Source of the DNA: Muribaculum sp.
GTDB lineage: Bacteria; Bacillota; Clostridia; Lachnospirales; Lachnospiraceae
Assembly: GCA_023663735.1 (NCBI GenBank)
Contig: JAMPGV010000017.1
Span: forward strand, 1 to 45,329
DNA: 45,329 nt
Reading direction: 5' to 3'
The notes under the pieces are model-generated. The model made no database searches. It was not told the origin of the DNA and was given only the letters and a program-made list of their open reading frames with translations. The position numbers and the translations under genes are program-made. Position 1 is the first letter of the stretch, and each line of letters begins with the position of its first letter. Positions 1-45,329 of this stretch are shown piece after piece.

Positions 1-54
1 AATATACAATCTGCACAATTCGGATTACCTAAATTGGAGTTTTGCAATTGCCTA
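1..54 (-). mobile_element. Left-end fragment of the foldback repeat family, cut by the window edge
   Basis: Read on the minus strand, this begins with TAGGCAATTGCAAAAC and ends with AATTGTGCAGATTGTATATT. It aligns without gaps over its first 34 bases with the left end of the full copy at 45123-45329, and the last 26 bases are nearly identical to that copy. The rest of the element would lie outside the window. It sits just beyond the stop codon of the acetyltransferase gene. Confidence 0.8.
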
Positions 55-43215: not shown

Positions 43216-43299
43216 TAGACGATTGCGAAACGATATTTTCTGGAATCCGAATTGTGCAGATTTGACCCTCTACGAAATGTAGTGTTTCGCAAACGCCTA
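43216..43299 (+). mobile_element. Short foldback element between galK and galT, with direct repeats at both sides
   Basis: 84 bases. Left end TAGACGATTGCGAAACG and right end TGTTTCGCAAACGCCTA are near-perfect inverted repeats. The interior keeps GGAATCCGAATTGTGCAGATT of the long copies but lacks the central stem. TGATTTTGAC occurs directly before (43206-43215) and after (43300-43309), like a target-site duplication. It encodes no protein. Confidence 0.8.
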
Positions 43300-44805: not shown

Positions 44806-44871
44806 CAGGGCGATGAGTTGCGCAGATTGTACAATGACACTTTCCGAACTGTAGCGTTTTGCGATCGCCTA
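44806..44871 (+). mobile_element. Degenerate, internally deleted copy of the foldback element
   Basis: The end TAGCGTTTTGCGATCGCCTA matches the right end of the other copies, and GTTGCGCAGATTGTA matches their left interior. The left inverted repeat is eroded. It is followed by the 11-base spacer CTGCATATTTT, which also separates the two long copies. Confidence 0.6.
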
Positions 44872-44882
44872 CTGCATATTTT

Positions 44883-45110
44883 CAGACGTTTGCAAAGCTG
44901 CATTTTTCGGAATCCGAATTGTGTGAATGGTATATCCCATAAGCAGACCCTAGCGAAACGCCGGCACACAACGTAACTTCGTTACGATTGACGCTGTACT
45001 TTAGCGTCTTATGTGCCGCTGCGGTGAGGTTGGAGCGCAAGCGTGTCTGCGTTGGAATATACCATTTACACAATGACTCTTTGTAAATTAGAGAGTTTCG
45101 CAAACACCTA
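44883..45110 (+). mobile_element. Full foldback element, copy A
   Basis: 228 bases. Ends AGACGTTTGCAAAGC and GTTTCGCAAACACCTA are imperfect inverted repeats. Inside, TTGTGTGAATGGTATATCC pairs with GGAATATACCATTTACACAA, GCAGACCC with GTGTCTGC (one mismatch), CGGCAC with GTGCCG and GACGCT with AGCGTC. It has an extra small hairpin (CGTAAC-TTC-GTTACG, 44972-44986) that copy B lacks. Short reading frames across it are not credible genes. Confidence 0.8.
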
Positions 45111-45122
45111 ACTGCATATTTT

Positions 45123-45329
45123 TAGACGTTTGCGAAACGACATTTTGGGGAATCCGAATTGTGCAGATTGTATATTCATAAGCAGACCCTAGCGAACCGC
45201 CGGTACTTAGACGCTGTACTTTAGCGTCTTATGTACCGTTGCGGTGAGGTGGGAGCGAAAGCGGGTCTGCGTTGAATGTGCAATTAGCACAATGACTCTT
45301 TGCAAATTAGAGCGTTTCGCAAACGCCTA
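45123..45329 (+). mobile_element. Full foldback element, copy B, ending at the window edge
   Basis: 207 bases. Left end TAGACGTTTGCGAAACG (45123-45139) and right end CGTTTCGCAAACGCCTA (45313-45329) match at 16 of 17 positions when inverted. Inside, TTGTGC pairs with GCACAA, ATTGTATATTCA with TGAATGTGCAAT (two wobbles), GCAGACCC with GGGTCTGC, CCGC with GCGG, CGGTAC with GTACCG and GACGCT with AGCGTC, so most of the element folds on itself. The window ends exactly at its last base. Confidence 0.82.

What the first reader, a model, noticed from the sequence alone, without database searches (positions are those of the whole stretch)
44883..45329. Paired sequence changes between the two long copies keep the same stem
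Copy A has CGGCAC/GTGCCG where copy B has CGGTAC/GTACCG. Copy A has TTGTGT/ACACAA where B has TTGTGC/GCACAA. In the next stem AATGG/CCATT of A becomes GATTG/CAATT in B. Base pairs change on both sides together, which points to selection or repair acting on the fold. It could be a structured RNA, a DNA hairpin recognised by a transposase, or arms kept alike by hairpin-templated conversion.
Basis: partly seen in the sequence, partly recalled or inferred. Interest (0 to 1): 0.75.

Follow-up and report, generated by a model that had tools for sequence, protein, structure and literature searches.

The report
Jumping DNA with a self-matching hairpin
The window ends in two copies of a small jumping DNA element whose core folds into a hairpin seen in many members of one bacterial family, and the two sides of that hairpin change together far more often than chance allows, probably because the pairing of the DNA itself is being kept.

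Summary
Over many copies it is strong: partners change on the same tree branch 37 times against 3.2 expected in the core, but 23 against 20.8 in the terminal repeats. The copies are ~207-bp MITEs with inverted ends and ~10-13 bp target duplications (43 of 59; control 23 of 1155). The same ends flank IS1182-like transposase genes in two sister species that lack the hairpin. The hairpin core, with no Rfam match, is in 64 of 150 genomes sampled from the same family (Lachnospiraceae, inferred) and 5 of 196 from the class, all that family. One relative carries it in a different repeat beside TwoAYGGAY RNA. G-U pairs are as rare as A-C mismatches (18 v 20 of 3318 cells) and orientation to genes is unbiased (74:82). 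I favour pairing kept at the DNA level, by selection plus arm-templated copying, over an ordinary structured RNA; one stem and own-genome events lean to RNA, so this is unsettled.

The parts
44883..45110 (+). Copy A: full MITE, 228 bp, carrying an extra ~20-nt hairpin in its core
   Evidence: Terminal repeats and 12/12 target duplication; folds z -7.0; model hit 44930-45059, 57.7 bits
45123..45329 (+). Copy B: full MITE, 207 bp; its last base is the end of the contig
   Evidence: z -8.4, folded as 45111-45329; model hit 45168-45279, 103.3 bits; 54 matches of the region in own genome
44871..44882 (.). Left target-site duplication ACTGCATATTTT of copy A
   Evidence: 12 of 12 identical to 45111-45122
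45111..45122 (.). Right target-site duplication of copy A, also the left flank of copy B
45168..45279 (+). Conserved hairpin core of copy B (stems P1-P4 and a GNRA-type side hairpin)
   Evidence: Model R1; covariation of the core
45201..45206 (+). P3 5' strand CGGTAC, pairs with 45233-45238 (CGGCAC in copy A, 44962-44967)
   Evidence: Read; pair counts
45233..45238 (+). P3 3' strand GTACCG (GTGCCG in copy A, 45013-45018)
44968..44989 (+). Extra small hairpin in copy A, in place of the TTA internal loop of copy B
   Evidence: Alignments; the same insert is in L019, L037, L043, L044 and L045
44815..44871 (+). 5'-truncated remnant of a third copy, followed by CTGCATATTTT
   Evidence: repeat family D7
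43216..43299 (+). 84-bp internal-deletion copy: both ends kept, hairpin core gone, flanked by the duplication TGATTTTGAC
1..54 (+). End of a further copy cut by the contig start

Best explanation
The region holds two MITEs of one family and the remnant of a third. Shown: ~16-bp inverted ends, target duplications of about 10-13 bp, at least 71 core copies in the genome, no room for a transposase gene, and IS1182-like transposase genes between the same ends in two sister species. Inferred: such a transposase moves, or moved, the MITEs in trans. Shown: the body is a long imperfect hairpin with a core conserved across one bacterial family in its unpaired motifs (TTA/TTAT internal loop, GTAYTTT end loop, GNRA-type side loop, YT bulge), while stems P1, P2 and P4 and the outer arms vary widely with the two sides matching. 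Inferred: pairing is kept mainly at the level of DNA (hairpin or cruciform) rather than as one strand of RNA. Selection during spreading keeps the unpaired motifs and the fold; replication-time copying of one arm from the other (template switching) supplies many of the simultaneous two-sided changes. The hairpin is a module riding in at least two kinds of repeat, not a part the IS1182-like transposase needs.
For: Ends: 109 + 101 TIR-like sites in own genome v 1 + 3 for the reversed pattern; target duplications 43 of 59 v control 23 of 1155. Partner: IS1182-like gene between the same ends in G016 (1742 bp) and G005 (1813 bp, frame broken), no core in them. Core: 71 in own genome, 43 of 61 genus genomes, 64 of 150 family genomes, 57 of them with two or more hits, 5 of 196 class genomes, all this family; own genome counted in each. 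Covariation. Branch test: core 37 v 3.2, G017 25 v 1.4, terminal repeats 23 v 20.8. DNA-like pairing: GU 18, AC 20 of 3318 cells (unchanged after removing loci fetched twice) against 34 GU of 312 in 14 tRNAs. Orientation 74 sense, 82 antisense of 286 elements examined. Fast paired change in the variable G017 arm: 0.143 two-sided per pair, 0.037 one-sided per site, flank 0.243 per site. Second carrier in G006.
Against: P4 (six pairs, loop-closing pair included) shows GU 15 v AC 2; own-genome core events show GU 25 v AC 6 (on pairs chosen by an RNA fold of the consensus, which favours GU); own-genome outer arms 36 v 9. These lean to RNA. Private core changes in own genome are mostly one-sided (25 v 7), so arm copying is not fast there. 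The partner transposase was sought in 22 genomes: it is near full length only in G016 and G005; own genome and 7 other element-rich genomes (G006, G012, G017, G032, G077, G079, G082) have none, G027 and G022 only short weak matches, and two element-free genomes have pieces (G014, G001). It scores 81.9 bits against the IS1182 equivalog cut-off of 270. No target duplication could be shown for the autonomous copies. The core set was gathered with a model and a pattern that demand the loops, so loop conservation is partly built in. The tRNA control brackets GU but not AC pairs, so only its GU share is comparable.
Confidence: 0.55

Rival explanations
1. A structured RNA (small RNA with its own promoter, or an mRNA-borne element) is the selected product; MITEs merely carry it around.
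For: Covariation; GNRA-type loop with a covarying 2-bp stem (pairs 97-104 and 98-103); strand-specific conserved unpaired motifs; P4 GU 15 v AC 2; own-genome GU 25 v AC 6 events; own-genome outer arms 36 v 9; sits beside TwoAYGGAY RNA in G006.
Against: Overall GU 18 v AC 20 of 3318 cells; no orientation bias to genes, 74 v 82; private changes hit core stems nearly as often as elsewhere (0.9% core stem, 0.9% core loop, 1.7% outer arm, 1.4% terminal repeat), which argues against each copy being a selected gene; no Rfam match over the core.
Confidence: 0.3
2. Paired changes come only from hairpin-templated conversion (template switching), with no selection on the fold.
For: Simultaneous two-sided changes on single branches; paired-change rate in the variable G017 arm not far below the unpaired flank rate; private outer-arm changes in own genome 27 two-sided v 16 one-sided; mechanism reported in print (PMC8794818, outline with abstract and opening text seen).
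Against: Asymmetric loops and bulges persist over the family although copying would tend to erase them; 25 one-sided v 7 two-sided private core changes; terminal repeats, also inverted, are not homogenised. The loop evidence carries ascertainment: the searches used those loops.
Confidence: 0.1
3. The hairpin is the recognition site of the MITE's own transposase.
For: All 54 full-length-looking copies aligned or read by eye kept it only because they were found through it, so there is no independent support; the idea rests on the conservation of the fold.
Against: IS1182-like elements with the same ends lack it; four 84-90 bp copies without it have exact target duplications; G006 carries the hairpin without these ends.
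Confidence: 0.03
4. A REPIN-like element moved by a RAYT (Y1/HUH) transposase as single-stranded DNA.
For: Intergenic, multicopy, hairpin-forming, compensatory changes as reported for REPINs (PMC3116915, passages); close pairs almost always diverge (17 minus-plus, 1 plus-minus, 1 plus-plus).
Against: No Y1 match in 8 of 10 element-rich genomes, while 3 of 10 element-free genomes have one; only one weak core hit (13.2 bits, E 0.024) near the five Y1 matches; own copies have DDE-type ends with target duplications.
Confidence: 0.02

Closest known systems
Bacterial MITEs, here with IS1182-like ends
   Same: Short, non-coding, inverted ends, target duplications, many intergenic copies, deletion derivatives
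   Different: Carries a family-wide conserved hairpin core; partner transposase below the IS1182 equivalog cut-off and not found in the own assembly
REPINs / REP doublets (Bertels and Rainey 2011, PMC3116915; passages read)
   Same: Extragenic hairpin repeats with common compensatory changes and an inverted arrangement of units
   Different: ~110-nt branched core instead of short REPs; ends with target duplications; no Y1 match in 8 of 10 carriers tested
TwoAYGGAY RNA (RF01731)
   Same: Occurs with the core inside the G006 repeat (9 of 12 loci scanned)
   Different: A separate stretch about 80 nt away on the opposite strand; does not match the core
Template-switch maintained hairpins (PMC8794818; outline with abstract and opening text seen)
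   Same: Simultaneous changes on both stem sides
   Different: There RNA genes; here a mobile element with conserved unpaired loops

Membership tests
MITE | Terminal inverted repeats shared by the copies | tested here: met
   109 + 101 ends v 1 + 3 control
MITE | Target-site duplication | tested here: met
   43 of 59 end-to-end copies, control 23 of 1155
MITE | No transposase of its own | tested here: met
   207-228 bp; no ORF of 150 aa or more in 44883-45329
MITE | Autonomous element with the same ends | tested here: met
   Found in G016 and G005; not in own genome; target duplication of the autonomous copies not shown
IS1182 family (partner) | Transposase over the NCBIfam equivalog cut-off | tested here: not met
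   81.9 bits v cut-off 270; PF01609 22.2 v cut-off 23; DUF772 53.6 v 23.1 met; hence called IS1182-like only
REPIN/RAYT | Y1 (RAYT) transposase in carrier genomes | tested here: not met
   No match in 8 of 10 element-rich genomes
REPIN/RAYT | Hairpin with compensatory changes | tested here: met
Structured RNA family | Covarying conserved fold | tested here: met
   0 of 500 shuffles reach the score; the shuffle does not keep relatedness, but the branch test does
Structured RNA family | G-U tolerated over A-C (one strand read) | tested here: inconclusive
   Overall 18 v 20; P4 15 v 2; own-genome events 25 v 6; outer arms 36 v 9 own, 18 v 16 others, 1 v 1 G017
Structured RNA family | Transcribed | not testable with these tools
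   No RNA data; only no orientation bias
Known Rfam family | Match at gathering score over the core | tested here: not met

The most novel reading that the evidence does not exclude
A family-wide DNA-structure module of Lachnospiraceae: a hairpin kept by DNA pairing rather than RNA function, hitch-hiking in unrelated transposon contexts, with arms renewed by self-templated copying while its unpaired motifs stay fixed.
Probability: 0.3. Interest if true: 0.8.

Novelty: new variant of a known kind. Interest (0 to 1): 0.58.

Why it matters
Paired changes are usually read as proof of a functional RNA. Here they are abundant in a mobile element whose core helices show no overall one-strand (G-U) signature and no orientation bias, so the case can separate RNA selection from DNA-level pairing and arm copying, with many natural replicates (64 of 150 sampled genomes of the family). 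It also supplies an apparently uncatalogued family-wide hairpin (no Rfam match) that could be mistaken for a conserved ncRNA, and shows a listed RNA family (TwoAYGGAY) inside a dispersed repeat.

Tried and rejected
Autonomous partner by paired ends within the sequence then held (1.06 Mb, 212 records): only neighbouring MITEs came up. PF01609 search of 8 genomes: none in own genome; a G016 hit led to the partner. L151, two cores 5 kb apart: ordinary-looking genes between (read by eye, no family search). Y1 transposases. Phage and plasmid collections: no match; viral contigs: none for the exact core pattern. Rfam weak hits are sub-threshold microRNA hairpins and one rRNA, taken as chance. Age test (target-duplication mismatches v stem mismatches): no correlation, rho 0.05 on the 38 of 48 copies with at most 4 mismatches; not used because boundary choice is loose and the singleton count points another way. 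GU/AC in the outer five P2 pairs (30 v 120 for all eight pairs) was not used: the register differs between subtypes, so only the inner 3 pairs count. Rows dropped: of 293 model hits 3 lacked a P3 end, 44 lacked the anchor motif or flank and 9 were duplicate sequences, leaving 237; 48 of 72 own-genome hits had the standard length and were used; two contig-end copies and L302:120-246 were left out of the G017 set, 19 of 22. Seven of the 293 hits were the same place fetched twice; the first context count (76 v 84 of 293) was redone without them (74 v 82 of 286). In one search some rows of the mixed group are mis-anchored. A first tRNA parse failed and was redone. An earlier count said 14 one-sided changes; sums to 13. 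Papers: searches listed no report of this element (titles and starts of abstracts seen); the library is partial, so this is not proof of absence in print.

Full report
What is there. The last 447 bases of the window are two tandem copies of an interspersed repeat, A (44883-45110) and B (45123-45329), preceded by a truncated third copy. The same 12 bases ACTGCATATTTT lie before A and between A and B. The window is one contig of a 2.65-Mb draft genome, and B ends exactly at the contig end. Both copies fold far better than shuffled sequence (z -7.0, -8.4).

Mobile element. BLAST finds 54 matches in the own genome (40 of 137 first-look candidates scored) and the core model finds 71 (150 of 523 scored). 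Ends fitting TAGRYRWTTGCRAAAY with at most one mismatch number 109 + 101 against 1 + 3 for the reversed control pattern. Of 59 end-to-end copies, 43 have a direct repeat of 8 or more bases with at most 1 mismatch; 42 of these are 10-13 long, 13 being the longest tried. With flanks shuffled between copies 23 of 1155 do. Four 84-90 bp copies that lost the hairpin, window 43216-43299 among them, have exact duplications. This is a MITE.

Partner. No PF01609 transposase is in the own assembly. In sister species G016 a 519-aa open frame lies between TAGGTAATTGCGAAAC and TAGGCGTTTGCGAAAC, 1742 bp in all; it has DUF772 (53.6 bits, cut-off 23.1), PF01609 just under its cut-off (22.2 v 23), and scores 81.9 bits to the NCBIfam IS1182 model (cut-off 270), so I call it IS1182-like. 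G005 has a second element with the same ends, 1813 bp, its frame broken. Neither holds the hairpin core. That this transposase moves the MITE is inferred from the ends. Against it, own genome and seven other element-rich genomes of the 22 searched have no relative of it (several are incomplete drafts).

The core. A 68-sequence alignment gave model R1. Anatomy, read: P1 (often GCAGRC/GYCTGC); a variable P2; P3 CGGTAC/GTACCG with a YT bulge on its 3' side; a TTA/TTAT internal loop; P4 of six freely varying pairs with loop GTAYTTT; and a side hairpin with a GNRA-type loop. R1 hits 43 of 61 genomes of the genus, 64 of 150 of the family (63 of 149 genera; 57 of the 64 with two or more hits) and 5 of 196 of the class, all of this family; own genome is counted each time and the filters were strict. 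I take the family to be Lachnospiraceae because G006 has the length of GAM79 (AP018536.1, 4,078,671 bases) and many titles in the capped list name that family or genera placed in it; a few MAG titles name other groups. No Rfam family matches the core.

Covariation. On the 68 sequences 94.4% of cells pair (shuffled 78.2%), 271 cells have two-sided changes (74.9), and the covariation score is 0.472 (0.153; 0 of 500 shuffles reach it); sliding the partner drops pairing to 22-43%. In 19 copies of one sister species 98.3% of cells pair and 18 of 50 pairs have two-sided changes (8.1). A tree test asks how often partners change on the same branch: own-genome core 37 against 3.2 (maximum of 1000 shuffles 8.6), own-genome outer arm 18 against 9.3, G017 25 against 1.4, own-genome terminal repeats 23 against 20.8. 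The effect is strongest in the core and not seen in the inverted ends.

RNA or DNA. A G-U pair on one strand is an A-C mismatch on the other, so selection on one RNA strand should favour G-U. By position-anchored counting over 237 unique sequences (P2 inner 3, P3, P4 inner 5), G-U is 18 and A-C 20 of 3318 cells; 14 tRNAs from the same loci have 34 G-U of 312 pairs (the tRNA tool does not bracket A-C, so only the G-U share compares). In the G017 outer arm it is 1 and 1 of 234. Against this: all six P4 pairs have 15 v 2, own-genome core events 25 v 6 (on pairs chosen by an RNA fold), own-genome outer arms 36 v 9; other genomes' outer arms 18 v 16. P3 in sequences found with the exact pattern could not vary. 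Of 286 elements (293 less 7 fetched twice), 156 lie between tandem genes: 74 sense, 82 antisense; 21 are divergent, 12 convergent, 1 overlaps a gene, 96 undetermined (first count). A cis-acting mRNA element should show bias.

Selection or copying. In G017 the variable arm has 0.143 two-sided changes per pair and 0.037 one-sided per site between nearest copies, with the unpaired flank at 0.243 per site; so fast a two-sided rate is hard to reach through poorly paired intermediates and suggests arm copying (my inference). Private changes in the own-genome outer arm point the same way (27 two-sided, 16 one-sided), those in the core do not (7 and 25), and the unpaired loops persist. Singletons are spread rather evenly (terminal repeat 1.4%, outer arm 1.7%, core stem 0.9%), which suggests that single insertions decay and that the fold is kept in the spreading lineage.

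A module in two contexts. G006 has 32 core copies and no exact match to the end pattern TAGNNRWTTGCGAAAYT. There 17 of 30 loci held share a ~485-525 bp repeat at 90% identity or more; 4 of the 9 copies printed have ends GGAAAGTTAGT/ACTAACTTTCC, the rest are degenerate, and no target duplication was worked out. Nine of 12 loci scanned hold TwoAYGGAY (RF01731) next to the core on the opposite strand. So the core is not tied to one set of ends. Print: REPINs also show compensatory changes (PMC3116915, passages); template switching can maintain hairpins (PMC8794818, outline and abstract); TwoAYGGAY is listed as a probable RNA in PMC2864571 and in a table of PMC11701678 (passages).

Verdict. DNA-level pairing is favoured, not proven.

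Noticed in passing
19 close pairs in 19 sources, e.g. L119:2990-3386, L205:1934-2222, L161:3323-3617: Two cores within 600 bp are nearly always divergent: 17 minus-plus, 1 plus-minus, 1 plus-plus (same after de-duplication); this hints at a composite inverted unit. Random insertion would give about half same-orientation.
   Followed up: partly
L331, L333, L334, L337, L338, L340, L350, L351, L355 (G006): TwoAYGGAY RNA (RF01731) lies inside a dispersed ~500-bp repeat, in some copies with inverted ends, so this Rfam family is, at least here, part of a mobile-looking element.
   Followed up: partly
L381, L382, L383 (G016): A second ~142-bp element with the same ends but a different long hairpin around CCGAAGCAGTGGC; similar stretches occur in L058 and L069.
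   Followed up: no
window 44871-44882 and 45111-45122: Neighbouring insertions share one target sequence although A and B are only 80% identical, which suggests repeated insertion into one site.
   Followed up: no
L086-L090, L093: Some own-genome copies carry an extra ~67-nt hairpin at the P3/P4 junction, others a ~20-nt one: the core seems to grow by added hairpins at a fixed place.
   Followed up: no
L161:3506-3617 and L172:5581-5692: Core whose 5' half matches one subfamily and 3' half another, so its arms do not match; either recombination or a draft-assembly join.
   Followed up: no
G386:C59:125127-125729 and G386:C21:12428-12912: Same-direction arrays of the core with ~164 and ~187 bp spacing.
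   Followed up: no
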